This document shows, one piece after another, positions 2,735 through 22,505 of a stretch of 22,505 nt of DNA. A program made the translations under genes and the position numbers. Positions within the stretch are counted from its first letter, which is position 1. Every line of letters begins with the position of its first letter. The stretch is from contig MWDY01000269.1 in assembly GCA_002070755.1 (NCBI GenBank), positions 1-22,505 on the forward strand. The letters are read 5' to 3'. Below the pieces are notes generated by a model. The model was not told the origin of the DNA. It searched no databases and worked only from the letters and a program-made list of their open reading frames with translations. Origin of the DNA: Spirochaetes bacterium ADurb.Bin110. Lineage in GTDB: Bacteria > Spirochaetota > Spirochaetia > Treponematales > Rectinemataceae.

Positions 2735-2760
2735 ATATATTCTCCATAAAAGCGATGTAT

Positions 2761-4898: not shown

Positions 4899-4925
4899 TT
4901 CAAACCTCCGGAAAACTTTAAAATA

Positions 4926-4969: not shown

Positions 4970-4997
4970 ATATACAGCCAGTCTCAGAAACATGCAA
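4969..4997 (-). promoter_or_regulatory. Candidate promoter of the DeoR-E2-E3-E1 operon
   Basis: Minus strand: -35 TTGCAT (4997-4992), 17-bp spacer, -10 TATATT (4974-4969) preceded by TG. The expected start near 4962 gives a leader of about 64 nt that contains the phased TTTC repeats. Confidence 0.45.
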
Positions 4998-5018
4998 GGC
5001 CTTTTGTCGATAGAATAA

Positions 5019-5032
5019 TGTAATCGTTTGCA
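5019..5032. promoter_or_regulatory. LacI-type operator, upstream copy
   Basis: TGTAATCGTTTGCA fits the TGNAANCG-centred pseudo-palindrome bound by LacI/GalR proteins. On the minus strand it shares the 12-mer AAACGATTACAT with the second site. A LacI-family regulator is encoded in the operon that starts just downstream. Confidence 0.7.
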
Positions 5033-5041
5033 TTTTTTATC

Positions 5042-5070
5042 TTGACAGAATGGAAAAACCATGTAATCGT
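5042..5070 (+). promoter_or_regulatory. Candidate promoter of the sugar operon
   Basis: Perfect -35 TTGACA (5042-5047), 17-bp spacer, weak -10 AATCGT (5065-5070) with an extended TG at 5062-5063. The -10 region lies inside the second LacI-type operator, so repressor binding would block polymerase. The expected start near 5077 gives a leader of about 107 nt. Confidence 0.5.
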
Positions 5071-5075
5071 TTACC
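5062..5075. promoter_or_regulatory. LacI-type operator, promoter-proximal copy
   Basis: TGTAATCGTTTACC, near-identical to the site at 5019-5032 and exactly 43 bp downstream of it, about four helical turns. It overlaps the candidate -10 element. Confidence 0.7.
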
Positions 5076-5096
5076 TATTCGATGCAGTCGAAAGTA

Positions 5097-5146
5097 GCAT
5101 TGCACTATGAAGGTGCATGCTTTTAGGCTGAAATAGATTGATCTAT
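5097..5146 (+). promoter_or_regulatory. Structured leader of the sugar operon
   Basis: Two inverted repeats lie in the predicted 5' leader. GCATTGCAC (5097-5105) pairs with GTGCATGC (5113-5120) around a 7-nt loop, with one unpaired base, and is followed by TTTT. ATAGAT-TG-ATCTAT (5133-5146) is a perfect 14-bp palindrome. The first resembles a weak attenuator, the second could be a protein site; neither role is shown. Confidence 0.3.
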
Positions 5147-5183
5147 CTGTGGCCTTTCGCCGCTGATTATAGGAAAAGGAGTC

Positions 5184-6710: not shown

Positions 6711-6715
6711 ACAGC

Positions 6716-7996
6716 ATGACAGCAGAGAATGTTAGCGTAAGCCGTATGCAATGGTTCAAGGAGAGGGGCTTAAAGTACGCGCTTGCTCCGGCCGCATTGA
6801 TCATCCTATACGTGTTCTTCGGTATTTTTGGAATGAACTATTTCTCCTACCCGACCCTGGTCAATATCATCGATGCTTCTTACTATATCGGGTTCATCTC
6901 AATGGGAGTAACATTTGTCATCATCTCTGGTGGCATAGACCTCTCTGTCGGAACAGTGATGATGGCCTCGGCGCTTATCGGTGGAGTCGCCCTCAAGCAT
7001 GGCGTACCTATGCTTCCGTCCCTCCTTCTCATCATTTTGGTGGGGACCGGCTTTGGATTCTTCAATGGAATCATAGTATCGAGGCTGAAGTTGCCGCCTT
7101 TCATTGCAACTCTTGGCACTATGATGATTTCGATGGGGGTGGGTTCTATCGTTTCAAATGTTCAGAGTGCCACTTTCCCAATTCGCGGACAGCCTGGCGG
7201 TTGGTATAAGAATCTTTTTCTCTATCTCTCCCCAGAAGGCGGAATGATACCAACCGGCGCTATTCTTCTTCTTCTTGTGGGAGTGATCTGCCACCTTATT
7301 CTTTCCAACACAAAGCTCGGACGCTACACCTATGCCATAGGCAGCAATATAGAGGCGGCTAGACTTTCCGGCGTCGATGTCCAGAAGTGGCAAATGATGG
7401 TTTATGTTATCTCTGGGGCAACTGCGGGAATTGGTGGAATTTCTTACGCGGCGATCTATACCACAGTTCTTCCTGCACAGGGCCAGGGGTTCGAGCTCTA
7501 TGCGATCGCGGCGGCTGTTATTGGCGGCACTTCTCTTTCTGGAGGCGTCGGCACGATATGGGGCACGATCATTGGTGTGTTTATTATGTCCGTGCTTGCG
7601 ACAGGTTTGCCCGCAATGAACCTTCAAGCGCATTGGCAGACCTTCTTCACGGGGGTAATCGTCATTGGGGCGGTGTTGCTCGACATGTACCGAACCAAGA
7701 AAGCTTCAGAAGTGCGAATCGAAACCGCAGCTGATGTTTACAAAGCAGAAATGTCCGAGAAGATTGCTTCCATGAAGCGTGAGCTCTCCTCGCTGAAGGC
7801 TTCCGGTGATAGAGACAGAGTCGCCGATCTCCAGAAAGAAATTGCAGCCGCCCACCGCGAATTAAAAGCGACCTTTGCTGCGAAAAAAGCAGAAGAAAAG
7901 GCTGAGCAGGCCAGAATACGCGCCGAAGAGCGCGCTGCAGACCACGAGTTTTCTGAAATGCTGAAACACAGAGATAATCCTATAGATAACATATAA
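6716..7996 (+). CDS. Sugar ABC importer permease (RbsC/MglC type) with charged C-terminal tail
   Basis: Inner-membrane channel subunit. About 325 residues of hydrophobic segments carry the family's GGIDLSVG, LPPFIATLGTM, AARLSGVDV and AVIGGTSLSGG motifs. The start at 6716 follows AGGGAG at 6701-6706 and lies 5 bp after the ATPase stop; the frame is open further upstream inside the ATPase gene, but those 37 residues are not family-like. Odd: after the last membrane segment (VLLDMYRTKK) come about 100 more residues rich in Ala, Glu, Lys and Arg that look like a cytoplasmic coiled coil. Ordinary members end at roughly 320-340 residues; this one has 426. Confidence 0.94.
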   Translation: MTAENVSVSRMQWFKERGLKYALAPAALIILYVFFGIFGMNYFSYPTLVNIIDASYYIGFISMGVTFVIISGGIDLSVGTVMMASALIGGVALKHGVPMLPSLLLIILVGTGFGFFNGIIVSRLKLPPFIATLGTMMISMGVGSIVSNVQSATFPIRGQPGGWYKNLFLYLSPEGGMIPTGAILLLLVGVICHLILSNTKLGRYTYAIGSNIEAARLSGVDVQKWQMMVYVISGATAGIGGISYAAIYTTVLPAQGQGFELYAIAAAVIGGTSLSGGVGTIWGTIIGVFIMSVLATGLPAMNLQAHWQTFFTGVIVIGAVLLDMYRTKKASEVRIETAADVYKAEMSEKIASMKRELSSLKASGDRDRVADLQKEIAAAHRELKATFAAKKAEEKAEQARIRAEERAADHEFSEMLKHRDNPIDNI

Positions 7997-8009
7997 GGCA
8001 GGTGTCTAG

Positions 8010-8032
8010 TCCGCGTAGCGGATTTATTTATT
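8010..8032 (+). terminator. Short hairpin with T-rich tail after the permease
   Basis: TCCGC (8010-8014), loop GTA, GCGGA (8018-8022), then TTTATTTATT. The stem is only 5 bp, so any termination would be partial. It would lower ATPase and permease levels against the binding protein, or protect the upstream mRNA end. Confidence 0.35.
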
Positions 8033-8040
8033 GGCAATTG

Positions 8041-8063
8041 AGCTCCGGAGGAAATCCGGGGCT
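8041..8063 (+). promoter_or_regulatory. Strong intercistronic hairpin before the binding-protein gene
   Basis: AGCTCCGGA (8041-8049) and TCCGGGGCT (8055-8063) form a 9-bp stem with one G-U pair around a GGAAA loop. It ends 7 nt before the AAAGGAGG ribosome-binding site. Hairpins here often mark RNA processing that leaves the binding-protein message more stable than the rest. Confidence 0.5.
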
Positions 8064-8083
8064 GAATAGCAAAGGAGGATTCT

Positions 8084-9172
8084 ATGCATAGTGCAAAAAG
8101 AGTGAGAACAGTGATTGTGGCTCTCGTCCTTTTAGCCGCACTGACTGTTCCTGTGTTCGCTGCAGGCCCGATTTTCATCCCCATGATTTCAAAGGGCTTC
8201 CAGCATCAGTTCTGGCAGACGGTTATGAAGGGAGCCAAGGACGCTGCTGATAAATATAATGTCGTCATGACCTTTGAAGGACCGCCTACAGAAGCTGACA
8301 TTCAGCCTCAGGTTCAGATGTTAGTCAATGCAATGGCTAAAAACCCATCGGCTATTTGTTTGGCTGCCCTGGATACAAATTCCGTCATGGATCAGCTCAA
8401 TGAGGCTATTAGGCGCAAAATTCCAATCATTGGATTCGACTCGGGCGTCCCCAACGCGCCAAAGGGAGCGATTTACGCGACCGCCGCGACAAACAGCTAT
8501 GCTGCCGCAGGGCTTGCTGCACAGAAGATGTTCCCGGTCATCAAAGACAAGATCATAGCAGCAACCCCTTCCAACCCTATCACTATCATCGACTTCAATC
8601 AGGATGCGACAAGCCAATCGGTCACTGACCGAGGCAAGGGATTCCGCGACATGATGATAAAGCTCATCACGACTGAAGGAAAACGCTCTCTGAGTGACAT
8701 CAAAGTGACCGGCAACCCGGCGTACATTGCGCCTGACAGCCCCACAAGTGGAAAAGCGATAATCCTCGAAATGGTAGTTCCCGCTTCCCCTAGAGACACC
8801 GACGCAACCAACACGGCGCAAGCAATCCTTACCCGCGTGAAAAGAGACCATATTGTCGGAATTTTCTGCTCGAACGAGGGCACCGCTCGCGCTATTCTTT
8901 CTGCCTCTAATGATGGCACCGCCCTACCAACTCAGTATCCTGGCCTCGTGGTCATCGGATTCGATGCAGGGAAGGCACAAAAAGCAGCAGTCCGCAACAG
9001 ATACTTCTTTGGCGCGATCACGCAGGATCCGTACATGATCGGCTATGCTGCTATGGAGCTTGCGTACAAAGCGGTGATGGGACAGCCTGTTTCCGACATC
9101 GATACTGGCGCTAAATTCTTTGACTACAGCAACATGGATCAGCCGGATATTGCTCAGCTCTTGTACGACTGA
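8084..9172 (+). CDS. Periplasmic sugar-binding protein of the ABC importer (Peripla_BP_4 type)
   Basis: Captures the sugar and delivers it to the permease. It has a clear signal peptide: basic HSAKRVR, a hydrophobic core and a signal peptidase I site after VFA (A26). There is no lipobox cysteine, so it should be soluble in the periplasm of a two-membrane cell. The mature part begins with a FIPMISKGFQHQFWQTV strand-helix and contains paired Rossmann-like lobes (IGFDSGVPN, GIFCSNEGTARAI, VIGFDAGK), typical of ribose/galactose-type binders. At 362 aa it is longer than RbsB (about 300). Very strong ribosome-binding site AAAGGAGG. Follows the permease by 87 bp holding two hairpins and is followed by a strong terminator, so it is probably the most abundant product here. 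Confidence 0.93.
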   Translation: MHSAKRVRTVIVALVLLAALTVPVFAAGPIFIPMISKGFQHQFWQTVMKGAKDAADKYNVVMTFEGPPTEADIQPQVQMLVNAMAKNPSAICLAALDTNSVMDQLNEAIRRKIPIIGFDSGVPNAPKGAIYATAATNSYAAAGLAAQKMFPVIKDKIIAATPSNPITIIDFNQDATSQSVTDRGKGFRDMMIKLITTEGKRSLSDIKVTGNPAYIAPDSPTSGKAIILEMVVPASPRDTDATNTAQAILTRVKRDHIVGIFCSNEGTARAILSASNDGTALPTQYPGLVVIGFDAGKAQKAAVRNRYFFGAITQDPYMIGYAAMELAYKAVMGQPVSDIDTGAKFFDYSNMDQPDIAQLLYD

Positions 9173-9237
9173 GAATCCATTCAAGCTGGGCTCGACTTGA
9201 GGATTCGCGTTACGGCGACGATCTCGGTTGACGCGAT

Positions 9238-9273
9238 AAAAGGGGCTGCCAAAAGGAATGGGCAGCCCCTTTT
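9238..9273. terminator. Strong hairpin terminator after the binding-protein gene
   Basis: AAAAGGGGCTGCC (9238-9250) and GGCAGCCCCTTTT (9261-9273) form a perfect 13-bp stem around a 10-nt loop. The flanking A and T runs make it bidirectional in form. Genes continue on the same strand 45 bp later, so it probably reduces rather than ends transcription into the catabolic genes; I saw no convincing new promoter in the gap. Confidence 0.85.
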
Positions 9274-9318
9274 GCATGAAAGACAGGAAATATATATGCA
9301 TGATGGAGATAATAGGAC

Positions 9319-10311
9319 ATGATAGCGGTGTGCGGCGAGAATCTCATCGATATGGTGCCCTCAGAACATGGGAAAGACCTCTTTGAGGCTTGTCCAGGGG
9401 GCTGCCCTTACAATAGCGCTATCGCTGCAGCGCGACTCGGTGTACCTACATGGTTTATTGGGAAAACATCGAAAGATTTTCTTGGTGAGAAGATCATCTC
9501 AAAACTTCAGAGTTCTGGAGTGGACACATCTCTTCTTCTTCGAGCCGACCAGGCCATGACTCTTGCCTTTGTTGAGCGCGATGCCGCGGGCAATGCAAAG
9601 TATGCGTTCTATTCAGAAGGTGCTGCCGATCGATGCTATTATCCTGACGATTTGCCTCTAGCGCTTCCTGAGGCATGCCGCTTTTTGCTTGTTGGTTCGA
9701 TATCTTTGGTTCAGGAGCCTTCGGGTTCTACAATTTGTTCGCTCATCGAAAGGGAGTATGCAAAGAGACTCATAAGTTTCGACCCGAATGTCAGACCCAG
9801 CATTATCAAATCTAGAGCGGAGTATCTGGAAAGATTCGACTGGATCTGCAGACACAGTGCCATTGTCAAGGCGAGCGATTCGGATCTTGAATGGATCTAT
9901 GAAATGCCGCCAGCTCAGGCAGCTGAAAAAGTGCTGGCATTGGGGCCGGAACTTGTAGCACTCACCTTGGGAGATCATGGAGCTATGATATTGACAAGAC
10001 AACACTATCTTGTCTCTCCGGCTCGGAAAGTACAGATCATCGATACAATCGGTGCGGGAGATAGTTTTCATGCTGCACTTCTTGCAGGTCTTGGGTGGCT
10101 CAAGGTGAGAGATCGGAAGAGTCTTGCATCCTTGAGCGAAGTCAATCTTAAAGCGGTTTTGCGCCTTGCCAATTCTGTTGCCGCCCTCGACTGCCAGAGA
10201 CGAGGAGCAGAGCCGCCAACGCTGCGGGAATTGGCTATTTTCGATCCTGAAGCAGCGAGAATTGCGCCCGGCACCATTCCCACATTCAATTCTAAGGAGC
10301 GTATATGTTGA
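9319..10311 (+). CDS. PfkB-family sugar kinase
   Basis: Cytoplasmic ATP-dependent sugar kinase of the ribokinase/fructokinase type. The N-terminal signature is [15 protein letters not shown] with the following [11 protein letters not shown], and the C-terminal signature is [16 protein letters not shown] (242 on), with catalytic base Asp248 and the GAGD anion hole. Length 330 aa is normal. It overlaps fucU by 7 bp and lies beside fucI, so the likely substrate is the ketose from the isomerase (L-fuculose, or D-ribulose from D-arabinose). That would replace FucK, which belongs to the unrelated FGGY family; this is inference. GGAG at 9305-9308 precedes the ATG. Could also be a fructokinase recruited for another sugar. 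Confidence 0.93.
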
Positions 10312-10742
10312 TAGGAATAAAGCCATGCATTTCGGCTGAATTGCTCTCAGTCCTCTATAGGATGGGGCATGGAGATGAGATCGTGCTTGCAGATGCGTTT
10401 TTTACGGGCGATTCGCTAAATTCTCGTGTGGTACGGGCAGATGGCATAAGGATTCCAGATCTGCTCGATGGAATTCTGCGCCTTATCAACCTAGATTCTT
10501 ATGTCGACGATCCGGTTGTCATGATGGCTCCCTCGAAAGGAGATAGCCTCGATTTCGAGGTGGAGAGGAGATACCGTGAAGTGTTAGACCGATATTGGCC
10601 AAAAACCCCTCCGATTCAGCGTATGGAACGCTTTGCTTTCTATGAGAGGGCTAAGAAGGCTTTTGCTGTCGTAATGACAGGAGAGACTGTGAAATATGGG
10701 AATATCATCCTCAAAAAAGGAGTACCTCCCGTTACGGAATGA
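10305..10742 (+). CDS. fucU: L-fucose mutarotase (RbsD/FucU family)
   Basis: Interconverts the alpha and beta anomers of L-fucose so that the isomerase receives its preferred form. It follows E. coli FucU closely from end to end: MGHGDEI with catalytic His22, [25 protein letters not shown], a second conserved segment [13 protein letters not shown], then [15 protein letters not shown] and the C-terminal [15 protein letters not shown]. The FucU-type rather than RbsD-type ending supports fucose. Length 145 aa fits. Starts inside the end of the kinase gene (7-bp overlap), with AAGGAG at 10293-10298, implying translational coupling. Confidence 0.95.
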
Positions 10743-10778
10743 TATGTTTTAGTTTTTGTCTTTTCAGGGAGTCGCATA

Positions 10779-11786
10779 ATGGCAAGAGAGACCGTTACCA
10801 TCAGAGATGTCGCAGAAAGGGCTAAGGTATCCACCGCAACTGTCTCTCGAGTGCTCAATAATGATGGTCGCGTACGGAAAGAAACGAAACAGATAGTACT
10901 TGAGGCGATGGAATCGCTCGGATATAAGCTCAATTTTGTGGCGCGGAGCCTAAAGACAAGCCGAACGCGGACCATTGGTGTGCTGGCGCCTGATCTTTCT
11001 GGCGATTTTTTCATGTTCATCGCGGAGAGCATGAATAGAGAGCTCACAGGGCGGGGATATTCTCTCGTTGTTGGCTCCAGTCAAGGTTCAGAAGAGGAAG
11101 AAGCAAGGCAGATCCGCCATCTCGCAGAACGACTGGTCGATGGAATTGTGCTTATCCCGGTTGGGGGTTCCAGTGTCTATCTTCCTCAGATTTCGGCCTT
11201 CAATATTCCGATTGTCTTTGTAGACCGAATACTCAAGGGCTATAAAGCGGATAAGGTGCTTGTCGACAATGAGGAAGGAGCATACAAGGCGGTCAGCGCC
11301 TTGATAAAAGAAGGGCATCATCGCATTGGATTTTTAGGAGGCAATCCCGAAGTCACTACTGCAGAGGAGCGCTATGAAGGCTATTGCAGAGCTATGAAAG
11401 AAGCAGACCTTGAAATCGAACAAAAATATACACGCTTTGGTAATCCGACACTTCCCTTTGGCTATCGTGCTATGGAAGAAATAATGAAAGACCCCTATTC
11501 GCCCAACACCTGGTTCATAGTTAATCTTTTTACACATTTAGGTGCAACGAATTACTTGATCTCTGAGGGAGGAGAGCGTGCAAAACGGATCACTTTTGCT
11601 GCCTTCGACGAGATGCCATATTCGCCCCTATTGCGCTATTGTCGGTATGCGGTTCAGCAACCGATTGCGGAGATGGGAAAGGCAGCTGCTAATCTCATCA
11701 TCGACAGAATCGAGGGCAAAGGACCCCCTGAACCCCAGACTCTCAGATTCAAGACAAGATTGATTCAGCATACACTAGTGCGTTAA
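10779..11786 (+). CDS. LacI-family transcriptional repressor of the sugar operon
   Basis: N-terminal helix-turn-helix ([21 protein letters not shown], from residue 7) with a LacI hinge around [14 protein letters not shown], followed by a periplasmic-binding-protein-like effector domain ([50 protein letters not shown]). Length 335 aa is typical. The inducer is probably the operon's sugar or its ketose. It sits inside the operon it should control, 36 bp after fucU and 25 bp before fucI, and two LacI-type operators flank the promoter about 5.7 kb upstream, giving autoregulation. CAGGGAG precedes the ATG. Confidence 0.95.
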
Positions 11787-11811
11787 GCAACATATTTATT
11801 GGAGGAACAGT

Positions 11812-13626
11812 ATGGAACAGACAAAAGATTTTCTTCTTCAGCCACCCAAGAATAGGTGGAAGGGAATTCCACCGAAGATAGGTATTCGCCCTGCCATCGA
11901 TGGCCGTCGCAGAGGAGTTCGCGAGTCGCTAGAAGAGGTGACAATGGGCATGGCCAAGGCAGCAGCAAGACTAATTTCCGAAAATATCCGCCACCCTACT
12001 GGCGAGCCGGTTGAATGTGTAATCGCCGATACTACGATTGGAGGCGTTGCCGAAGCTGCGGCCTGCGCTGAGAAATTTGCTAGAGAAGGAGTGGCTGTAA
12101 CACTTACTGTTAGCCCTTGTTGGTGCTATGGCTCTGAGACTATGGACATGGATCCTCTGACAATCAAGGGAGTGTGGGGATTCAACGGCACAGATCGACC
12201 AGGAGCGGTATATCTAGCGGCGGTATTGGCCGCTCATTCTCAGATGGGCTTGCCGGCTTTTGGCATCTATGGTCGCGATGTCCAGGACATTACAGATGCT
12301 CAAAGGATCCCAGCGGATGTTGCGGAAAAGATTCTGCGCTTTGCTCGTGCGGGTATCGCTGCGGCTTGGATGCGCGGCAAGAGCTATCTCTCCGTCGGTT
12401 CGGTTGCCATGGGTATTGCAGGCTCCATCGTCAATCCTGATTTCTTTAGAGAATACCTTGGTATGCGCAACGAATATGTCGACATGAGCGAGATTGTGCG
12501 GCGTATCGAAGAAAAGATCTATTCAGAAGCTGAATTTCATCGCGCTATGCAGTGGGTAAAGACCTACTGCAAAGAAGGCCCTGACAACAATCCTCTCGAA
12601 GAGCAGCATTCTCGAGCTCGCAAAGATAAAGTATGGGAAACCTGTGTCAAAATGGCGATGATCGTGCGCGATCTTATGGTTGGCAATCCAGATCTCCGCA
12701 GAAAGGGCAGAGAAGAGGAAGCTCTTGGCCATAATGCGATTCTGGCGGGTTTCCAAGGGCAGCGCCAGTGGACCGATCATTTTCCCAACGGGGATTTTCT
12801 AGAAACGATGCTTAATTCTAGTTTCGATTGGAATGGGATTCGCGAGCCCTACCTCGTCGCTACCGAGAACGATTCTCTCAATGGAGCTGCGATGCTGTTT
12901 GGCCATCTTTTGACAGGCAGTGCGCAGATTTTCTCAGATGTGCGAACGTATTGGAGCCCCGAAGCTGTACAACGCGTTACAGGTTGGAAGCCTACTGGAC
13001 TAGCGGAATATGGCTTCTTGCACCTCATAAATTCTGGCGCGACCTGCCTCGATGGCACCGGCTGTCAGCGTATAAATGGTCAGCCTGCACTAAAACCATG
13101 GTGGCAAGTAGAGCCAGAAGAAGCAAAGGCTTGCCTCGATGCGACACAGTGGCGCTATGCAAGTCTTGGGTATTTCCGAGGAGGTGGCTATTCTTCGGAC
13201 TTTTTGACTGAAGGTGGCATGCCTGTTACCATGACTCGCATCAATATTATCAAAGGCCTTGGTCCTATGATTCAGATCGCCGAAGGACATACGGTGACAC
13301 TGCCAGCAGAAGTGCACAATACACTGGATTTGCGCACCGATCCTACCTGGCCCACTACATGGTTTGCCCCAAGGCTCACAGGAACTGGTCCCTTCAAGGA
13401 TGTCTATTCAGTAATGGCGAACTGGGGAGCCAACCATGGAGCTAGCTGTTATGGCCATATAGGGGCGGATCTCATCACTCTCGCTTCGATGTTGCGTATC
13501 CCAGTGGCTATGCACAATGTTCCCGCCGAAAAGATATTCAGGCCAAGCTATTGGAACGCCTTTGGTATGGATCCCGAAGGAGCAGATTATCGCGCCTGTT
13601 CGGCGCTTGGGCCTTTATTTGGTTGA
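11812..13626 (+). CDS. fucI: L-fucose isomerase
   Basis: Mn2+-dependent aldose-ketose isomerase converting L-fucose to L-fuculose; the family also accepts D-arabinose. It follows E. coli FucI along its whole length: [56 protein letters not shown] and NWGANHG. Metal and catalytic positions correspond to Glu352 (VATEND) and Asp376 (FSDVRTYW), with the same 24-residue spacing as in E. coli, and His542 (ANHG). Length 604 aa against 591, mostly from about 14 extra N-terminal residues. GGAGG lies just upstream. Last gene of the operon; its stop codon starts a tandem repeat. Confidence 0.97.
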
Positions 13627-13680
13627 ACTGAAGGATAGATGAACTGAATAGGTGAACTGAATAGGTGAACTGAAGGAGAG
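13624..13680 (+). repeat. Tandem repeat starting at the fucI stop codon
   Basis: TGAACTGAA starts at 13624 (the stop codon), 13640, 13653 and 13666, spacings of 16, 13 and 13 bp. The two middle units are identical TGAACTGAATAGG. A second in-frame stop (TAG) follows four codons after the first. Confidence 0.85.
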
Positions 13681-13831
13681 TGTGCGGCTCATTGAAGCCC
13701 ATCTTGAGCTCGATTACGATTGAAGTATACAATGAGACGTTTTCGAATTGCCTTGGAATATGAGCTACAGTATTGACTCATCTAGGCTATCTGAAAGCAA
13801 TAAGTCCCCTTGAAGGTCGCTTATTCATTAT
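13681..13831. other. Intergenic gap between fucI and the ABC exporter
   Basis: No gene found. Contains a loose inverted repeat CTCATTG (13688-13694) with CAATGAG (13730-13736), and ATTGAAG twice (13691, 13719). A TTGACT at 13773 could be a -35, but no good -10 follows at the right distance. No T-rich terminator was seen after fucI. Confidence 0.4.
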
Positions 13832-15589
13832 ATGCAAAAAAAACTAGATTCAAACGATTACCTTAGTACCATTATGCGCTACCTTTCCCACTATAGAATG
13901 CTAGCGCTTCCTGGGCTCGCCGTGATGATCGCCATTGCTGGCGGGCAGCTCGCTGGCCCATATATCTTAAAACAGATAATCGATGTTGCAGTGCCAAGGA
14001 GCGATACTTCGCTTCTTCTTACCTACGCCGCCGCGTTCCTCGGAATTGTCTCGGTGACAGGAGCGCTGAGTTATGTGGGTATGATATTGCTAGCGCGCCT
14101 CGGCCTGTCGATTGTAACGCTGGTCAAGCAAGATATTTTTTCACACCTTTTGAAGCTTCCGGTATCCTATTTCGACAAGCATCCTGTTGGTGAGCTTATG
14201 TCTCGCACGGAGACAGATACCGAAAGGGTACGCGACATGTTTTCCACTCTTGGCGCGAACCTCATTGTAAATGTACTTACTATGATTGGGATATTCATAG
14301 TGACCTTTGCTTTGATGCCTGCGCTTGCACTTATCATGGTGGGCATTTCGTTGGGTCTTTTAATAATCTTGGTTCTGTTCTTCTCGAAGATCTTTCCTAT
14401 GTATGAGAAGGCTCGTTCACTGTATGCAAAGATCACCGCTAAGGTTACAGAATTCATCCAGGGCATCGAAGTCTTGAAAGCCTATGGAAGAACAGGATGG
14501 GCCGAGGCCGAACTGGATGCGACGGCTAAAGAGAGGATGTCGCTCGAGGTGCGCATTTCACTGATCGAATACTCAATGATGTCTATCCTGAATGCCTTGA
14601 TTGGTCCAATGTTCATCGTTGTGCTTCTTCTGCTCTACGCTCCAAAGGCTCTCACAGGGGCTATGACGCTTGGCACTATACTCCTCTTTGTCGAATATGG
14701 AGCGAGGCTTCTGCGCCCCATTGCGGAAATTGCCGAAAGCCTTCGAAGCCTTCAGCAGGCGCGCACTTCGCTTTCGAGGATTCGCACTATTATGGCTACA
14801 CCGGAAGAGCCAAATAGAGGCTCTGGGAAAGCCCCAACTTTTGAGCGAGAGATTCGCTTCGATCATGTTTGGTTTGCTTACGAGGATGAGGACTGGGTGC
14901 TGCGCGATGTCTCGTTTGTCATTCCAAAAGGGAGCTTTACTGCGATTGTCGGTGCAAGCGGTTCGGGGAAATCTACAATAATAAGTATTATCTGTGGTTT
15001 TGCCTTTCCTCAGCGAGGGAAGGTGCTGGTCGATGATATTCCCCTCGATGAAATCGATATTGTTGCTTGGCGAAGACATATAGGGCTTGTGTTGCAGGAA
15101 TCCTTTATGTTTCCAGTTTCTGTTCTAGAAAATGTAAGATTATACCAAGAAGAAATCACGGAAGACCAAGTTAAATCGGCGCTTTCGATTGTGCATGCTG
15201 ACAAGGCGGTCTCTATGCTTCCCAATGGACTCGAGGCGAATCTCTGGGAGCGAGGTTCGAATCTCTCCTCTGGAGAGCGGCAATTGATTTCTTTTGCAAG
15301 AGCGCTTGCGGCTAATCCCGATCTAATCCTCCTGGACGAGGCAACCAGCAATGTAGACATGACCACTGAGAAACATATCAAAGAGAGCATGGATGTACTT
15401 AGAAAGGGAAGGACAATGGTGGTGGTTGCCCATAGGCTTTCTTCGATTCTGAAAGCCGACCGGATATTCTATATAGATGAAGGTAGGCTCATAGCCGAAG
15501 GAACTCACGAAAGCCTCTACGAAGAATTGCCAGCCTATCAACTTCTTGTGGACCAGCAGTTTCCAACAGGCAAACGGGTGCTTGTATGA
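13832..15589 (+). CDS. ABC exporter half-transporter, first subunit of a heterodimer
   Basis: Multidrug/lipid-type exporter: an N-terminal six-helix membrane domain (about 20-310) fused to a nucleotide-binding domain. Walker A GASGSGKST (374 on, K380), Q-loop LVLQESF, signature LSSGERQ (478 on) in place of LSGGQ, Walker B LILLDEATS with catalytic Glu503, and H-loop VVVAHRLSS. Its Walker site is therefore competent while its signature is altered. Length 585 aa is normal. The ribosome-binding site is weak (GAAGG 15 nt upstream) and an in-frame ATG exists at 13874, so the exact start is uncertain. Overlaps the next gene by 4 bp (ATGA). Cargo is unknown. Confidence 0.93.
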   Translation: MQKKLDSNDYLSTIMRYLSHYRMLALPGLAVMIAIAGGQLAGPYILKQIIDVAVPRSDTSLLLTYAAAFLGIVSVTGALSYVGMILLARLGLSIVTLVKQDIFSHLLKLPVSYFDKHPVGELMSRTETDTERVRDMFSTLGANLIVNVLTMIGIFIVTFALMPALALIMVGISLGLLIILVLFFSKIFPMYEKARSLYAKITAKVTEFIQGIEVLKAYGRTGWAEAELDATAKERMSLEVRISLIEYSMMSILNALIGPMFIVVLLLLYAPKALTGAMTLGTILLFVEYGARLLRPIAEIAESLRSLQQARTSLSRIRTIMATPEEPNRGSGKAPTFEREIRFDHVWFAYEDEDWVLRDVSFVIPKGSFTAIVGASGSGKSTIISIICGFAFPQRGKVLVDDIPLDEIDIVAWRRHIGLVLQESFMFPVSVLENVRLYQEEITEDQVKSALSIVHADKAVSMLPNGLEANLWERGSNLSSGERQLISFARALAANPDLILLDEATSNVDMTTEKHIKESMDVLRKGRTMVVVAHRLSSILKADRIFYIDEGRLIAEGTHESLYEELPAYQLLVDQQFPTGKRVLV

Positions 15590-17472
15590 GCCAAAAATTC
15601 TATCATCTTCGCTGGATACGAGAGATTTGGCGAGAACGCCAAGCTCTTGTGTGGCTTTTGCTGTTTTTGACACTTCTATCGAGCGCAGTTGCAGTGGCTT
15701 TTCCTCTGCTCACAAAGCAACTCTTCGATCTACTCGAACACGCAATAGATACAAAGATGAGCGAAGATGCCGCGATGGCTCAGATTCGCCGGATAGCGCT
15801 CTATTTTGGGGCGATCGGGCTTGCAGGGCTCATTTCAGGCATCTTTCCTGGTGTGCGTGGCGCGCTCAACATGGTCTTCGACTACATTGTCCGAAAGAGG
15901 TATTTCGGCGAAGTGGTGCAAAAAGACATTAGATTTTTCAGTAAATTTCGCTCCGGCGATGTAATCACGCGCCTCACATCGGATATCTCCGATTGGCCAA
16001 AAATATCCTGGTTCTTGTGCTCTGGCATTTTCCGAGCGGTCGAGTCTGCAAGCAAAGTCACATTTTGCATCATTGTAATGTTCAGTCTCGATTGGAGACT
16101 TGCTCTTGCATCCCTTGCTTCCCTACCTGTCATGCTCCTTGTCTTCAGTAGAACACAGGCAGCTATCTACGACCGTGTTAATAAAAACGAGCAAGCCATA
16201 TCCGAGATAAACAACCAACTTGAGATGAGTTTTTCGGGAGTGCGCGTCATAAAGGCTTTTGCAAGCGAAGAAAAGTACACAAATTTCTTCAAGGAAGCGC
16301 TTGGCAAACGATTCAATACAGAGATAGACGTCATAAAGCTCGAGACCGTTATGCACCTTATCTATCAGTATATCGACTATGTGGCACAGATTGCTCTCGT
16401 GTTTGTGGGCGGATTGATGGTGACAAGACGAAGCATCTCGATAGGAACTTTTTACGCTTTCTATAATTATCTCAACATGCTCATCTATCCTGTGCTAGAC
16501 ATTCCTCAGCTCTTTGTGTTTGGGAAGCGAGCATTCGTCAATATAGATAGGCTAGAAGAGATGAGGCAATATGAGAGTGGATCTCAAAAACAATCTCCAA
16601 CATCGTCTCAGAAAAAACAAAGCCTATCGCTTCAAAATCGAAATAGGGTATCGTCTCAGAAACAGCAAGAATCTATGAAATCCATAAGGAACAGCGATAC
16701 CGCAAATATTGAAGTTTTCCGTTCTCTCTATTTCGAGAATGTCACAGTGCGATATGAGCAACGGCGCAAAGCAGCTCTATCGGATATCAGCTTCGAGATA
16801 TTGCCGGGCGAAAAATTCCTCATAATCGGACCGGTTGGATCAGGAAAATCCACCCTTATTAAGAGCGCACTCGGATTGCTCGAACCTCAGAAGGGTCGAG
16901 TAATGATAAATGATAGGCCTGTCCGAAGCCTGGAGCCGACAGAGATTCGCGGACTCATAGGATATGTTCCACAGGATCCCCTTTTGTTTAGTGGCTCGAT
17001 ACGAGAGAATATCCTCTTTGGCTGTCGAGAAGGCCAGAGCCTCACTGAAGAAGAACTCTTACGCATCATCGAGGTATCTCGTCTTACAGAAGAAATCGAA
17101 TATTTTTCGGATGGATTGGAAACCAAGCTTGGACAGCGCGGAACAAGCGTTTCAGGAGGGCAAAAACAGCGCATAGCAATTGCGCGGGCGCTTGCAGGCT
17201 ATCCTGGTCTGCTATTGCTCGATGATATGACGGCCTCGCTTGACACGAATAACGAAGAAGCCTTATGGCATTCACTAGCTGCAATGGCTGAATTCGCGCA
17301 GGCTGCGGTTATCGCTGTTTCTCATAGGCTATCGAGTATTCAGTATGTGGATCGAGTGCTGTTTTTAAATGGAGGGCGCATAGCCGGTTTTGGCAAACAC
17401 GCCGAGCTCATGGAGCAGAACGCAGCCTATCGCGAATTCGTGGCGGAGCATGTGCAGAGACCAGGGAAATGA
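15586..17472 (+). CDS. ABC exporter half-transporter, second subunit with degenerate Walker B
   Basis: Partner of the upstream half-transporter, translationally coupled by the ATGA overlap. A membrane domain to about residue 325 is followed by a Ser/Gln/Lys-rich repeat linker (332-363) and a nucleotide-binding domain: Walker A GPVGSGKST (415 on, K421), Q-loop YVPQDPLLF, full signature VSGGQKQR (522 on), Walker B GLLLLDDMTAS, where Asp547 replaces the catalytic Glu, and H-loop AVSHRLSS. In TM287/288-like heterodimers one ATP site has just this pair of defects, so this chain's Walker site with the partner's LSSGE signature should form the non-hydrolytic site. Length 628 aa is somewhat long because of the linker. 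Confidence 0.93.
   Translation: MSQKFYHLRWIREIWRERQALVWLLLFLTLLSSAVAVAFPLLTKQLFDLLEHAIDTKMSEDAAMAQIRRIALYFGAIGLAGLISGIFPGVRGALNMVFDYIVRKRYFGEVVQKDIRFFSKFRSGDVITRLTSDISDWPKISWFLCSGIFRAVESASKVTFCIIVMFSLDWRLALASLASLPVMLLVFSRTQAAIYDRVNKNEQAISEINNQLEMSFSGVRVIKAFASEEKYTNFFKEALGKRFNTEIDVIKLETVMHLIYQYIDYVAQIALVFVGGLMVTRRSISIGTFYAFYNYLNMLIYPVLDIPQLFVFGKRAFVNIDRLEEMRQYESGSQKQSPTSSQKKQSLSLQNRNRVSSQKQQESMKSIRNSDTANIEVFRSLYFENVTVRYEQRRKAALSDISFEILPGEKFLIIGPVGSGKSTLIKSALGLLEPQKGRVMINDRPVRSLEPTEIRGLIGYVPQDPLLFSGSIRENILFGCREGQSLTEEELLRIIEVSRLTEEIEYFSDGLETKLGQRGTSVSGGQKQRIAIARALAGYPGLLLLDDMTASLDTNNEEALWHSLAAMAEFAQAAVIAVSHRLSSIQYVDRVLFLNGGRIAGFGKHAELMEQNAAYREFVAEHVQRPGK
16579..16674 (+). repeat. Four 24-bp in-frame repeats in the exporter linker
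   Basis: Four units of eight codons, starting at 16579, 16603, 16627 and 16651, encode GSQKQSPT, SSQKKQSL, SLQNRNRV and SSQKQQES. The period is exactly 24 bp. They lie between the membrane and ATPase domains, where family members normally have a short linker. Confidence 0.75.
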
Positions 17473-17562: not shown

Positions 17563-17590
17563 TTGACGCTACAAAAAACAACACTATAAT
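17563..17590 (+). promoter_or_regulatory. Promoter of the first caspase-like gene, leaderless
   Basis: -35 TTGACG (17563-17568), 16-bp spacer, perfect -10 TATAAT (17585-17590). The ATG at 17598 follows after only 7 nt, so transcription should start at or within a base or so of the A of the start codon. A 10-bp palindrome GGAAATTTCC (17551-17560) lies just before the -35. Confidence 0.8.
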
Positions 17591-17597: not shown

Positions 17598-20420
17598 ATG
17601 AGAATGAGATTTGATAGAATTTCTGTTTCTCTACTTACTGCTTTTGCTTATCTTTTCTTGCTGATTGCAGCTTCTGGTTTTGCTCAAAATACATCACTAA
17701 GATATGCGCTGATTATTGGAAACGCAGACTATACAAGACTTCCAAAGCTCAAAAATGCCATCAACGACGCCTCCGACATGGCGGATATCTTAAAAGAGTT
17801 CGGTTGGAATGTCACGCTTCTTTTGAACGCGGATCTTCCTCAGATGGAACAGGCGGTGGTTCGGCTAGGGAATAGTGTGTCTATTGCCCCAAGCGCTGTT
17901 GGATTATTCTATTACGCAGGCCATGGGGTACAAGCAAATGGGATCAATTATCTCATACCCACTGATGCTGACATTGCGAGCGAGGTATTTCTAAAAATGA
18001 AATCGCTTGCGGCGCAAAGCGTGCTCGACGAGCTGCAGAGCGCCCGCAACAACCTCAATATCATCATCTTAGACGCATGTCGAGATAATCCATTCAGCTG
18101 GGCACGATCAGGCTCCCGCGGGCTCTCGGTGATATCTTCTCAGCCTCCTGGCAGCATAATTGTCTTTGCTACTGGTGCAGGAAGTGTAGCGCAAGAAGGT
18201 AGCGGAGATAATGGTGTATTCACTGCTGAGCTTCTCAAAAACCTCAGGACTCCTGGTCTTGATATCGGAGAGCTTCTCAATAGAACCTGCTCAGCAGTCC
18301 AGGAAGCCACCAATGGACAGCAAAATCCCGCAATCTACTCCCAATTTTTCAAATCATTTTATTTTAATGAAGCAAATGCCTCAAAAACCACGAATCCCCT
18401 TGCTCAGAATTCTTCGAAGCAGGATTTTTCTAGCTATAACCTCAATATAAGCCAGATTCCTCTAAAGACGGCGAATGTCCTGGTGACATCATCGGAAGTA
18501 AATGCGGATATCTATCTAAATGGAAGCTATAAAGGTCAAGCTCCCCTCTTCATTGAGAATGTAAGCGCAGAAAGGGAGGTCTATCTCGAGGCAAGGAAAG
18601 GCGAATATGAGGGAGAAGCACGTATCACTTTGGAACCTAGTGAGCATCGCGAAGTTGAGATCAAAATGTCTTTCAATACCTCTCGTTTTGGCTCGATTGA
18701 CTGCAGAGTACCTGACAGCGCCAGAGTGATGGTGCTCAACAAAGAGACCGGAGAATCTACATTCTTCAATGGGTCTTCGATTTTGCCAAACCTCCAGGAA
18801 GGTTGGTATTATCTAGAGGCAAGCAGCGCAGGGTATGAAGTTAAATCTGAAACTATCAAGGTCGTGAGAGGCGTGCAGGTGGTTTGGGAGCCTTTCAATA
18901 AGCGTTCAACCCTGCAATCAGAAGACATTCAAGCCTGTTTTCCACCATCAGGCACAAAGCTCGCACAATGGCCAACAGCATTTATTGTACCCGAAGTCGC
19001 AAATGCTGAACGATATGAACTGCAGATTTCTGCACAACCAGATTTCAAGGGCAATATAATATTCGATATTGATGGATTCATCTCCAATAAGATGGATGCT
19101 TCATTGGCAAAACTGACAAAAGGGAATCAGTATTATTGGCGCTATAGAGTAAAGAAGAACAATTCTTGGGGAGAATGGTCGCAGCCTGTTTCGATTGCCC
19201 TTGGTTATAGAGTAATCTACGATGGCAATGGATATACGAGCGGATCTATTCCTTATGATATAAATGGATATCTTCAAGGAGATACCGCAATAGTTCAAGA
19301 AAGGCCCATTGGTTTTGAAAAATGGAGCTATGGCTTTAGTGGATGGAATACGAAAGCTGATGGCAGAGGCACTAACTATTCATCAGGATCAGTCATTCCC
19401 ATAAAAAATCAGGATATCACATTGTATGCTAAATGGCGTCCTCTCGTCATGTCGTTGATAATGGTTATCCCTCCTGCTAAGCCTGGTGATAGCAATGAGA
19501 TTATTCAAGTTCCAATTGATTGGAATGTGAAAGATGTTGCTTTTGTCGCAGAAGGAGCCTTTCATACTATGATCATTCGGAAAGATGGAAGTCTCTGGGC
19601 TTTTGGCAACAACTCATTTGGCCAACTAGGCGATGGTACAACTAAGACTCGAACCAATTTTGTTAGGATAATGAAGGATGTTCGTGCCGTGTCTGCTGGT
19701 GAACGCCATACAATGATTTTGAAAAATGATGGATCCTTATGGGCTGTGGGAGACAATGGAAGCGGACAACTAGGAGATGGCTCTTATACATCGCATCTCA
19801 AGCCGGTCAAGGTTATGGATAATGTTGCATCCGTAAAAGCAGGAACTCAGCACACAATGATCATCAAGCAAGACGGTAGCCTCTGGGCCGCTGGAAGCAA
19901 TACATTTGGCCAACTAGGCGATGGGACAAATGCGAGTAAGCCTTCATTTGTCAAGATAATGGAAAATGTCAAAACAGTTGCTGTAGGAAATTGTCATACT
20001 TTGATCGTAAAGAATGACGGCACACTATGGGCGACAGGCAGCAATTCAGATGGTCAGCTATGCGATGGTACCCACAAAGATACAAACATGCCGATACATA
20101 CCATGGACAATGTTGAATTAGTGGCTGCAGGTGAATCACACTCGATGATCCTCAAGAAAGATCTTGGTCTTTGGGCAGCTGGCAGTAATCTGGCAGGGCA
20201 GCTGGGCATTCATGGGAATTCTGAACAGTCTGTGCCAGTCTTGGCAATGAAAAACGTGAGGGCTGTCGCAGCGATGTATAAGCAAACGATGATTATTAAA
20301 ACAGATAATACCCTGTGGCTAACCGGCATGAGCTCAGATGGACCATCTATTCCAACTAAGATAATGGACAATGTGGAATCAGCGGCCGTTGGGTATTATC
20401 AGGCTGTGATCTTAAAATGA
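17598..20420 (+). CDS. Secreted caspase-like protein with PEGA-like, Fn3-like, InlB-type and RCC1 domains
   Basis: Signal peptide ending SGFA (cut after A29). Caspase (C14) domain, about 35-255, with catalytic His109 in YYAGHG and Cys161 in LDACRDNP. Then a PEGA-like domain (about 291-358), a second PEGA-like unit (362-435), a Fn3-like segment (436-537, ending in YWRYRVKKNNSWGEWS), an InlB B-repeat-type unit (538-615, YDGNGY ... GWNTKADGRGTNY ... ITLYAKW) and an RCC1 propeller (about 652-940) of six repeats of the form HTMIIKxDGSLWAxGxNxxGQLGDG plus a closing strand. Substrate and site of action are unknown; it should lie outside the inner membrane. Start at 17598 because the -10 element ends 7 nt upstream; the frame is open to an ATG at 17547, but that lies upstream of the promoter. 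940 aa. Paralogue of the next gene. Confidence 0.9.
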   Translation: MRMRFDRISVSLLTAFAYLFLLIAASGFAQNTSLRYALIIGNADYTRLPKLKNAINDASDMADILKEFGWNVTLLLNADLPQMEQAVVRLGNSVSIAPSAVGLFYYAGHGVQANGINYLIPTDADIASEVFLKMKSLAAQSVLDELQSARNNLNIIILDACRDNPFSWARSGSRGLSVISSQPPGSIIVFATGAGSVAQEGSGDNGVFTAELLKNLRTPGLDIGELLNRTCSAVQEATNGQQNPAIYSQFFKSFYFNEANASKTTNPLAQNSSKQDFSSYNLNISQIPLKTANVLVTSSEVNADIYLNGSYKGQAPLFIENVSAEREVYLEARKGEYEGEARITLEPSEHREVEIKMSFNTSRFGSIDCRVPDSARVMVLNKETGESTFFNGSSILPNLQEGWYYLEASSAGYEVKSETIKVVRGVQVVWEPFNKRSTLQSEDIQACFPPSGTKLAQWPTAFIVPEVANAERYELQISAQPDFKGNIIFDIDGFISNKMDASLAKLTKGNQYYWRYRVKKNNSWGEWSQPVSIALGYRVIYDGNGYTSGSIPYDINGYLQGDTAIVQERPIGFEKWSYGFSGWNTKADGRGTNYSSGSVIPIKNQDITLYAKWRPLVMSLIMVIPPAKPGDSNEIIQVPIDWNVKDVAFVAEGAFHTMIIRKDGSLWAFGNNSFGQLGDGTTKTRTNFVRIMKDVRAVSAGERHTMILKNDGSLWAVGDNGSGQLGDGSYTSHLKPVKVMDNVASVKAGTQHTMIIKQDGSLWAAGSNTFGQLGDGTNASKPSFVKIMENVKTVAVGNCHTLIVKNDGTLWATGSNSDGQLCDGTHKDTNMPIHTMDNVELVAAGESHSMILKKDLGLWAAGSNLAGQLGIHGNSEQSVPVLAMKNVRAVAAMYKQTMIIKTDNTLWLTGMSSDGPSIPTKIMDNVESAAVGYYQAVILK

Positions 20421-20460
20421 CGCAAATTGCTTATAGGTCAGCAGTGATTCCAATATGTTC

Positions 20461-20488
20461 TTGACAAGTGGAAAAACAATACTATAAT
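20461..20488 (+). promoter_or_regulatory. Promoter of the second caspase-like gene, leaderless
   Basis: -35 TTGACA (20461-20466), 16-bp spacer, -10 TATAAT (20483-20488), then 7 nt to the ATG at 20496: the same geometry and nearly the same sequence as the promoter at 17563-17590. No terminator was seen between the two genes, so read-through from the first is possible as well. Confidence 0.82.
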
Positions 20489-20495
20489 TTTTTGT

Positions 20496-22505
20496 ATGAA
20501 AATGAGATTTAATAAAATAGTGCTTCATTTGCTTGCTGCGTGTCTGTGTCTTTTCTTCCTTGTTGGGGCTCCTAGTTTCGCTCAAGACACTGCCAATAGA
20601 TATGCGCTTGTCATTGGCAACGCCAATTACACAAAGCTCCCCAAATTGAGAAGCTCCGTAAATGATGCAAGCGATATGGCGGATATCTTAAAAAATCTCG
20701 GCTGGAATGTGACGCTCCTTTTAGATGCCGATCTTCCTCAAATAGAAGAGGCAGTACTCCGATTAGGGAATAGTGTCTCCATTGCGCCGAGCGCGGTCGG
20801 TTTATTCTATTACGCAGGCCATGGGGTACAGGCAAATGGAGTGAATTACCTCATCCCTGCTGATGCCGATATCTCGGGCGAGACATTCTTAAAGACAAAA
20901 TCGCTCTCGGTACAGAGTGTTTTGGATGAACTTCAGAAGGCGAGGAATAATCTCAATATCATAATCCTCGATGCCTGCAGGGATAATCCCTTTAGCTGGG
21001 CGCGATCTGGTTCTCGAGGGCTCTCGGTCCTGTCTTCGCAGCCTCCAGGGAGCATTATCGTCTATGCGACTTCCGCAGGCAGTGTCGCCCGCGAAGGTTC
21101 TGGAAGAAATGGAATCTTCACCGCGGAGCTCTTAAAGAATCTCAAGATTCCTGGCCTTGAGATTGAGGAAGTATTGAATCGAACATGCTCTGCCGTCCAG
21201 GAAGCGACCTATGGAGAACAGAATCCTGCAGTCTATAAGCAATTCTTCAAGTCCTTCTATTTTAATGAGCTGAAAGAGAAGCAAAAGCCTATTGAGCCAG
21301 TGATATTTAGCTCCTCACAGACGGCTGACCTCTTAGTGAGAGCCTCTGAACCCGACTCAGAGATATACCTAAACGATGTGTATAAAGGCAAAGCCCCCTT
21401 ATTGATACAAAAAGTAGAGCCAAATAAGCGACTCAAGGTATCTGCAAAAACAGCAACCTCGAGTGGTACGGATGAAGTCACCTTAGAGCCAGGAGAATTG
21501 CGGGAGATCACTGTTTCTATGGCGCCACTTAAGGGGAATCTTGTCATTATGGCGAATGAGAGCGATGTCCAGGTGCTCATCGATGGAGAGAGTAGAGGGT
21601 CACTTGGTTCTGGGATATTCCGCTCTCTTCCCCCGGGCTCTCACACTGTTGAGCTCGTTGGGAAGGATTCCTACTATAGCGAGAAGGTCGAGATTAGAGC
21701 AGATACAACGACGCAGATTACTGCAACAATGACTGCTGTTGGCTCAGCAGACATTAGAATCCCCACTGATGCATTAGCGAAATTGCATATAGGATCAGAG
21801 ATTAGAATCATTGAAGGACCAGGAATAGTGCGGAATTTGCCAGAAGGGAATTATTATATAGAGGCCGGCGGAAAAGACTATGTTTCAGCCAGTACTTTTC
21901 TCAACGTAAGAAAAGGCCAAGAGGTATCATGGGAGCCCTATAAGAATGGCTATATTTCCTTCGATGTCCTCACAAAGGGCTCAATCCTATTCATAAAAGA
22001 GCTTGCAAAAAGCTATCCCGCCCAGGGACAGATTTCCGACATTCCTCCTGGGCTATACCATGGCGTTCTTACAAAGAGCGGCTACAAGGATTCAGAGATC
22101 GAGATCGATGTGCAGCCAGGAAAGAAGACAGTGGTGAAAGTAAGCCTATTTATGCCCGAGCCCGGTAGAATAATCATGCAGAATTATGGCGTAAATATAG
22201 CTATGTATGTGAATGGCAAGTACTGGAATGCAAACACAGGAAAGGATGGGCTCATCTACTACGAAAATCTTCCGATAAATACGCCTCTCAAGTTAGAGTT
22301 TGAGCTTTCTTCATATAAAAGCGGAGAAAGAATATCTATACCCACGAGGACTCTCAAATTAGAGGAGGGCCAGACTCTGCAATTAGAGCTCGATGCTGGG
22401 CAAATCAGGGTCCCATTAGCGGACGGAATTTTCTACATTAGTGTGGGAGGAACGAGTTATACCGTTTTCCCATCCATAGATGACGAATTTATTACTCCAA
22501 GGCTT
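20496..22505 (+). CDS. Secreted caspase-like protein with PEGA-like repeats, partial at 3' end
   Basis: The frame is open from 20496 to the right edge (670 codons, no stop). Signal peptide ending PSFA (cut after A29). The caspase domain, about 35-255, is close to the preceding gene's, with the same numbering: His109 in YYAGHG, Cys161 in LDACRDNP. It is followed by a series of PEGA-like surface domains starting near residues 276, 346, 416, 485, 553 and 635; the best are the first (EIYLNDVYKGKAPL) and second (VQVLIDGESRGSL). The third resembles the first gene's second PEGA-like unit (NLPEGNYYIEA ... GQEVSWEPYKN). No InlB-type or RCC1 part is seen before the edge. No Shine-Dalgarno; start chosen from the promoter and from alignment with the paralogue, both beginning ATGAxAATGAGATTT. 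Confidence 0.88.
   Translation, partial: MKMRFNKIVLHLLAACLCLFFLVGAPSFAQDTANRYALVIGNANYTKLPKLRSSVNDASDMADILKNLGWNVTLLLDADLPQIEEAVLRLGNSVSIAPSAVGLFYYAGHGVQANGVNYLIPADADISGETFLKTKSLSVQSVLDELQKARNNLNIIILDACRDNPFSWARSGSRGLSVLSSQPPGSIIVYATSAGSVAREGSGRNGIFTAELLKNLKIPGLEIEEVLNRTCSAVQEATYGEQNPAVYKQFFKSFYFNELKEKQKPIEPVIFSSSQTADLLVRASEPDSEIYLNDVYKGKAPLLIQKVEPNKRLKVSAKTATSSGTDEVTLEPGELREITVSMAPLKGNLVIMANESDVQVLIDGESRGSLGSGIFRSLPPGSHTVELVGKDSYYSEKVEIRADTTTQITATMTAVGSADIRIPTDALAKLHIGSEIRIIEGPGIVRNLPEGNYYIEAGGKDYVSASTFLNVRKGQEVSWEPYKNGYISFDVLTKGSILFIKELAKSYPAQGQISDIPPGLYHGVLTKSGYKDSEIEIDVQPGKKTVVKVSLFMPEPGRIIMQNYGVNIAMYVNGKYWNANTGKDGLIYYENLPINTPLKLEFELSSYKSGERISIPTRTLKLEEGQTLQLELDAGQIRVPLADGIFYISVGGTSYTVFPSIDDEFITPRL

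What the first reader, a model, noticed from the sequence alone, without database searches (positions are those of the whole stretch)
17598..22505. Tandem secreted caspase paralogues with conserved heads and divergent tails
Both genes have a signal peptide, a caspase domain with His109/Cys161 at identical positions, and near-identical promoters, but different C-terminal modules. A conserved protease head with swapped display or binding modules is the pattern of an effector family that diversifies its targets. Caspase-fold proteins exported from a two-membrane bacterium are poorly characterised. Seen: domains and active sites. Inferred: duplication and effector role.
Basis: partly seen in the sequence, partly recalled or inferred. 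Interest (0 to 1): 0.7.

Follow-up and report, generated by a model that had tools for sequence, protein, structure and literature searches.

The report
Exported caspase fused to neighbour lipoprotein
Two neighbouring genes, probably from a spirochaete, encode exported, probably active caspase-type proteases with nearly the same front half; the first looks like a natural fusion of the protease with the lipoprotein that sits beside it in relatives, which suggests that the two work together.

Summary
Two tandem genes (17598-20420; 20496 to beyond the window) share 206 of 275 N-terminal residues, a signal peptide, His109/Cys161 and a TTGAC-16-TATAAT-7-ATG promoter, but differ further on. In a syntenic relative (G022) the gene 2 orthologue is followed by a separate RCC1 lipoprotein; gene 1 is a caspase head plus PEGA fused to that lipoprotein's body. 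The pairing is general: 17 of 19 caspases with a C-terminal membrane tail are followed by a DNPxDP-leader lipoprotein, against 1 of 129 without the tail (19 of 21 with two later loci). The lipoproteins end in modules (FGE, Lcl_C, RCC1, kelch, LamG) that also occur as fused tails of related caspases. Best reading: an envelope protease with an exchangeable recognition module, in trans (gene 2) or in cis (gene 1). The head resembles MALT1, predicting Arg/Lys cleavage. Activity, location and an effector role are untested, and the gene after gene 2 is outside the window. A probably cytoplasmic constant-caspase/variable-domain system is published; I found no description of the exported caspase-lipoprotein pair in my searches.

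The parts
17563..17590 (+). promoter of gene 1: TTGACG-16-TATAAT, 7 nt before the ATG; leaderless geometry
   Evidence: same geometry in the G022 orthologue of gene 2
17598..20420 (+). gene 1: exported caspase-PEGA-fn3-Flg_new-RCC1 fusion protein, 940 aa
   Evidence: full-length relative P0002 (924 aa; 73% identical, 75%)
17598..17687 (+). signal peptide region of gene 1 (aa 1-30), no lipobox Cys
   Evidence: sequence; membrane-like stretch from aa 5; helix 3-25 in the model; no dedicated signal-peptide predictor was available
17700..18362 (+). caspase (Peptidase_C14) domain of gene 1, aa 35-255; His109 at 17922-17924, Cys161 at 18078-18080
18471..18662 (+). PEGA domain of gene 1, aa 292-355
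18678..18896 (+). second PEGA-like region of gene 1 (aa 361-433), aligned with gene 2 and its G022 orthologue
18897..18917 (+). fusion junction (aa 434-440): caspase-gene homology ends, partner-lipoprotein homology begins
   Evidence: tblastx match to L158:10808-10951 ends at 18896; match to L158:12161 onwards starts at 18918
18918..19202 (+). fn3-like domain shared with the partner lipoproteins
   Evidence: profile of 16 partner lipoproteins, without L158, hits gene 1 at 6e-17
19206..19433 (+). Flg_new (Listeria-Bacteroides) repeat, aa 537-612
19530..20417 (+). RCC1-type beta-propeller, aa 645-940, seven blades by my reading of the predicted strands
20461..20488 (+). promoter of gene 2: TTGACA-16-TATAAT, 7 nt before the ATG
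20496..22505 (+). gene 2 (continues beyond the window): exported caspase-PEGA protein; relatives of 828-831 aa end in two membrane-like helices
20598..21260 (+). caspase domain of gene 2, aa 35-255; His109 at 20820-20822, Cys161 at 20976-20978

Best explanation
An envelope protease system with a constant protease and an interchangeable recognition module. Constant part: a caspase (paracaspase-like, predicted Arg/Lys-specific) exported by a signal peptide, carrying PEGA-type domains and, in the gene 2 form, held in the membrane by a C-terminal helix pair. Partner: a lipoprotein encoded directly downstream, with a C..DNPxDP..YQG-type leader, usually an fn3-like domain, and a variable end module (RCC1, kelch, NHL, FGE, Lcl_C, LamG). 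I infer that the module binds a ligand or target at the envelope and positions or triggers the caspase to cut a nearby protein. Gene 2 is the membrane-tailed form, working in trans with a lipoprotein that should lie just beyond the window. Gene 1 is the cis form: probably after tandem duplication of the caspase-lipoprotein pair, one caspase lost its membrane tail and was joined in frame to the fn3/Flg_new/RCC1 body of its lipoprotein. Shown by sequence: the two genes, the dyads, the fusion anatomy, the recurrent pairing in related genomes. Inferred: the duplication-then-fusion order, protease activity, specificity, compartment, and recognition by the module.
Against: No activity, localisation or binding data exist. 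The gene after gene 2 is outside the window, so the trans partner in this organism is unseen. The lipoprotein search pattern was written after I had read the neighbours, so its sensitivity is tuned; only the two loci came later and were read by eye. The loci are related and not independent. Two of 19 tailed caspases lack the partner (L234, L240). Two tail-bearing proteins without a caspase head also have the lipoprotein (L256, L260), so the lipoprotein may belong to the tail rather than to the protease. FGE, kelch or RCC1 modules may simply be common in spirochaete lipoproteins; I ran no control for that. Lipoprotein status rests on a lipobox-like pattern read by script and eye, not on a dedicated predictor.
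Confidence: 0.55

Rival explanations
1. Processing-peptidase reading: the caspase's substrate is its own partner. It cuts the linker of the attached tail (gene 1) or of the neighbouring lipoprotein (gene 2 form) to release or mature the display module.
For: Published inference that caspase-like domains are releasing peptidases of polymorphic toxins (PMC3482391, section 11, read) and deploy effectors by autoproteolysis in a two-gene membrane-associated system (PMC7159879, section 33, read). Linkers 259-288 and 434-464 are low-confidence in the model. Arg170 and Arg174 are invariant in the 34 aligned sequences and lie in the low-confidence stretch 169-186 just after Cys161.
Against: I saw no conserved Arg/Lys in the lipoprotein leaders by eye. 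The gene 1 linker 263-290 is not conserved even with P0002 (4 of 12 aligned). No recognisable toxin domain was found in gene 1 or in P0015.
Confidence: 0.25
2. One reading: secreted proteases with swapped modules that attack different outside targets.
For: Signal peptides, no membrane or lipid anchor seen in gene 1, protein-binding type propeller; many alternative tails on related heads.
Against: Gene 2-type relatives are membrane-tailed and caspases with that tail are coupled to lipoproteins. I did not search for a signal for passage over the outer membrane. The way of life of the source organism is unknown: the titles include fen and subsurface isolates as well as many Treponema assemblies of unstated source.
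Confidence: 0.12
3. Neutral domain shuffling: caspases and lipoproteins are simply frequent neighbours in these genomes and fused by accident, without a functional link.
For: Domain mixing is widespread in bacterial metacaspases (112 architectures, PMC3501461, passage). Only 4 of 88 caspases of all tail types in L001-L080 pass the lipoprotein pattern, one of them by error.
Against: Association with the tail type (17 of 19 against 1 of 129), short or overlapping gene distances, recurrence in at least 12 genomes by my count of the 17 pairs, and the fused gene kept in P0002 at 73-75% identity.
Confidence: 0.08

Closest known systems
EACC1-caspase two-gene conflict system ('System 4', Kaur et al. 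2020, PMC7159879; section 33 read, other passages seen)
   Same: constant N-terminal caspase with many alternative C-terminal domains; two-gene organisation; proximity to the membrane
   Different: [quoted passage not shown] here the caspase is exported, the partner is a 3' lipoprotein and the modules are mostly of extracellular type
Bacterial metacaspases/orthocaspases with accessory domains (Asplund-Samuelsson et al. 2012, PMC3501461; passages seen)
   Same: Peptidase_C14, His/Cys dyad, FGE-sulfatase the fifth commonest extra domain, spirochaetes included (89% dyad conservation)
   Different: RCC1 and PEGA do not occur in the main text and 'lipoprotein' occurs once, for metabolism; no caspase-lipoprotein pair in the passages seen
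MALT1 paracaspase
   Same: closest solved sequence and the listed fold match of the head; aligned His and Cys (to residue 164); followed by an Ig-like domain (chain titles)
   Different: eukaryotic and intracellular; 27% identity over 216 aligned residues
Caspase-like releasing peptidases of polymorphic toxins (Zhang et al. 2012, PMC3482391; section 11 read)
   Same: caspase in an exported protein upstream of variable C-terminal domains
   Different: no recognisable toxin domain here; caspase is N-terminal and constant
BLIP-II (beta-lactamase inhibitor protein II)
   Different: stand-alone inhibitor, no protease (recalled)

Membership tests
Peptidase family C14 (caspase/metacaspase/paracaspase) | Peptidase_C14 domain over the gathering cut-off | tested here: met
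   126.3 and 125.3 bits against a cut-off of 21.4
Peptidase family C14 (caspase/metacaspase/paracaspase) | catalytic His and Cys | tested here: met
   both genes; 118 of 119 heads, P0026 the exception
Peptidase family C14 (caspase/metacaspase/paracaspase) | proteolytic activity after Arg/Lys (para-, meta-, orthocaspases) | not testable with these tools
   acidic positions conserved; their role in MALT1 is recalled
EACC1-caspase System 4 | 5' gene encoding the single-TM EACC1 protein | tested here: not met
   upstream gene is an ABC exporter, and the 125-nt gap before gene 1 leaves room for 41 aa at most; no EACC1 profile was run
EACC1-caspase System 4 | constant caspase with variable C-terminal domains | tested here: met
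   16 tail classes, 'none' counted as one, over 119 heads; hand-assigned from the Pfam column
Polymorphic toxin with releasing caspase | C-terminal toxin domain | tested here: not met
   RCC1, Flg_new, PEGA and similar beta domains only, in gene 1 and in P0015
Polymorphic toxin with releasing caspase | immunity gene downstream | tested here: inconclusive
   gene 1 is followed by gene 2; downstream of gene 2 is outside the window
Tailed caspase plus DNPxDP lipoprotein pair (defined here) | two C-terminal membrane helices of the A3 type | tested here: inconclusive
   gene 2 is cut before its tail; its 654/670-identical relative P0015 has two membrane-like stretches; gene 1 has none after aa 30
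Tailed caspase plus DNPxDP lipoprotein pair (defined here) | lipoprotein directly downstream | not tested
   window ends inside gene 2
RCC1-type beta-propeller | RCC1 repeats forming a propeller | tested here: met
   [not shown]

The most novel reading that the evidence does not exclude
Spirochaetes carry a so far unnamed exported surveillance or signalling system in which a membrane-held paracaspase-like protease is paired with an interchangeable ligand-binding lipoprotein, an envelope counterpart of the constant-caspase/variable-domain systems described inside other bacteria. The window catches one pair turned into a single fused receptor-protease.
Probability: 0.35. Interest if true: 0.8.

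Novelty: new variant of a known kind. Interest (0 to 1): 0.6.

Why it matters
As I know the field, bacterial caspases are mostly discussed as cytoplasmic cell-death or defence proteases. A recurrent exported caspase paired with a lipoprotein that carries exchangeable binding modules would give these proteases a concrete partner, compartment and trigger to test. The natural fusion in this window works as a Rosetta stone that names the partner without an experiment. It also makes a sharp prediction: a lipoprotein gene directly after gene 2.

Tried and rejected
Gene conversion of heads: P0002, the relative of gene 1, sides with the gene 2 clade at 24 of 34 informative head sites and mostly with gene 1 beyond the head (break near aa 204/207; shuffles reach the observed value in 0 of 2000 over aa 31-440 and at a rate of 0.0065 within the head). 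Tree tests do not settle it: a gene 1 + P0002 head clade is not rejected (p-AU 0.105 for aa 31-206, 0.343 for aa 31-262), while for the PEGA region that clade has full support and the alternative is rejected at 7e-07. I keep conversion or head replacement as a possibility only. Whether the duplication came before or after the split from G022 also stays open.

RCC1 tails as one ancient fusion: rejected. P0003-P0011 carry RCC1 on a distant head clade and starred branches force at least two changes (quick tree). They lack the partner fn3-like domain.

General lipoprotein adjacency for all caspases: rejected. Among L001-L080, 4 of 88 caspases with room (one of them, L056, not a lipoprotein by eye) against 4 of 913 other frames; the link is to the membrane-tailed type.

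Leaderless-promoter regulon: TTGAC-16/18-TATAAT-5/8-RTG gave 54 matches (my sum) in 24 of 30 genomes against 2 for the reversed pattern. The reversed pattern is a weak control because promoters are real whether or not an ATG follows, so I claim only the shared geometry of three caspase genes. In most other spirochaete caspase loci the upstream sequence looked, by eye, like a Shine-Dalgarno site.

Defence system: PADLOC gives only its generic 'caspase' model for gene 1 and P0015 (E 1e-12) and nothing for the G022 lipoprotein. Literature: nothing in the listings, or in the passages read, describes the pair.

One search's other new places: of ten fetched, two are tailed caspases with the lipoprotein, two are tailed non-caspases with it, and six have neither a caspase nor the lipoprotein (weak matches; L262 ends at its contig).

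Full report
What is there. Two genes in tandem: gene 1 (17598-20420, 940 aa) and gene 2 (20496 to beyond the end, 670 aa visible). Both begin with a signal-peptide-like stretch and a Peptidase_C14 domain at aa 35-255. They are identical at 206 of the first 275 residues, with His109 and Cys161 at the same places, and both have a near-consensus promoter 7 nt before the ATG. A scan found no third TTGAC-N16-18-TATAAT site in the window. Neither gene shows a Shine-Dalgarno site, whereas 8 of the other 11 starts listed do, by eye. The G022 orthologue has the same -35/16/-10/7 geometry with a GTG start, so leaderless transcription is likely but unproven. Leaderless mRNAs are common in Leptospira (PMC5243855, passages).

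Origin of gene 1. In G022, after the same fucose isomerase and ABC exporter genes and three further genes, the gene 2 orthologue (L158:9509-11995) is followed 15 nt later by an RCC1 lipoprotein (L158:12011-13693) with no caspase. Gene 1 is homologous to the caspase gene up to aa 433 and, from aa 441, to the lipoprotein from its residue 51 on. A profile from 16 partner lipoproteins, without L158, hits gene 1 (6e-17) and P0002 (4e-16), plus P0001 (gene 1's own copy), and none of the other 119 sequences of the set. P0002, from another source, argues against an assembly error. Tandem duplication of the pair followed by one deletion would give the observed order, promoter copy and spacing; that history is inferred.

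The pair recurs. A profile of the membrane tail (A3) found 18 places in 13 of 194 genomes of the order. Seventeen of the 18 carry a caspase head and 15 of those 17 are followed by the lipoprotein. In a wider count, of 155 distinct caspase frames in the 243 loci held, 19 had the tail and room downstream; 17 of them were followed by a lipoprotein with the C..N..D leader, against 1 of 129 without the tail, and that one (L056) is not a lipoprotein by eye; seven frames had no room (Fisher 4e-19). Four of the 17 (L158, L193/L228, L203, L210) were the discovery set, and the leader pattern was written after reading. A later scan of 392 genomes of the phylum gave two more tailed caspases, both with the lipoprotein. 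The two misses are L234 and L240. Two proteins with a tail but no caspase, L256 and L260, also have it. The rows are related, so the p-value overstates the evidence.

Same modules in cis and in trans. Partner lipoproteins end in FGE-sulfatase, Lcl_C (DUF1566), RCC1 with Flg_new, kelch with LamG, chitobiase-C/Fn3_assoc, NHL or Big_2 (four of the 17 are cut by a contig or locus end, and L242 matched nothing). Tails fused to related heads include FGE, Lcl_C, RCC1 with Flg_new, LamG, kelch and Big_2 (best 120 of 2480 hits). On a tree of 119 heads (P0001 and P0026 left out) the tail labels need 39 changes, against 69 when shuffled: tails are inherited but exchanged often. No control was run for how common these modules are in spirochaete lipoproteins at large.

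Mechanism and confidence. Fusion anatomy about 0.9; active protease about 0.75; functional pair with the lipoprotein about 0.6; recognition module directing the protease about 0.45; substrate-is-the-partner about 0.25; outside effector about 0.12. These numbers are my judgement.

Known relatives. Kaur et al. 2020 describe a two-gene membrane-associated system with a constant caspase and up to 50 alternative C-terminal domains. Zhang et al. 2012 describe caspases as releasing peptidases of polymorphic toxins. Asplund-Samuelsson et al. 2012 list FGE among common metacaspase partners and count spirochaetes among the groups. The exported caspase plus 3' lipoprotein pair did not appear in searches; the library lacks most subscription journals.

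Taxon. No whole genome is held. The closest genome, G022, lies in one family with Rectinema subterraneum (L015/G006) and UBA6076 (L001/G001), so the window is probably from that spirochaete family or close kin; this is inferred.

Noticed in passing
L256 (G468) and L260 (G470): Proteins with the same membrane tail but no caspase head are also followed, 4 nt overlapping, by a DNPxDP-type lipoprotein; the catalytic head itself may be exchangeable.
   Followed up: partly
L158:11993-12013: In G022 the caspase and its RCC1 lipoprotein are in the same reading frame, 15 nt apart after a single stop codon.
   Followed up: partly
   Followed up: no
P0026: A pseudo-caspase with Tyr and Ala in place of the catalytic His and Cys within the same family.
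   Followed up: no
30 genomes of the family: Recurrent near-identical promoters placed 5-8 nt before an RTG in several genomes: possible conserved leaderless genes.
   Followed up: partly
window 3-17472: Ordinary surroundings: 2-oxoacid dehydrogenase acyltransferase and dihydrolipoamide-dehydrogenase type genes, a DeoR regulator, a sugar-type ABC ATPase, a PfkB kinase, a LacI regulator, an L-fucose isomerase (11812-13626) and two ABC exporters (Pfam); the E1-type gene at 3-1208 and the permease and binding protein are named by recalled resemblance.
   Followed up: partly
L158:5547-9389: In G022 two oxidoreductase-type genes (geranylgeranyl-reductase-like and GltD-like, by recalled resemblance) and a TetR regulator lie between the ABC exporters and the caspase; they are absent from the window.
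   Followed up: partly
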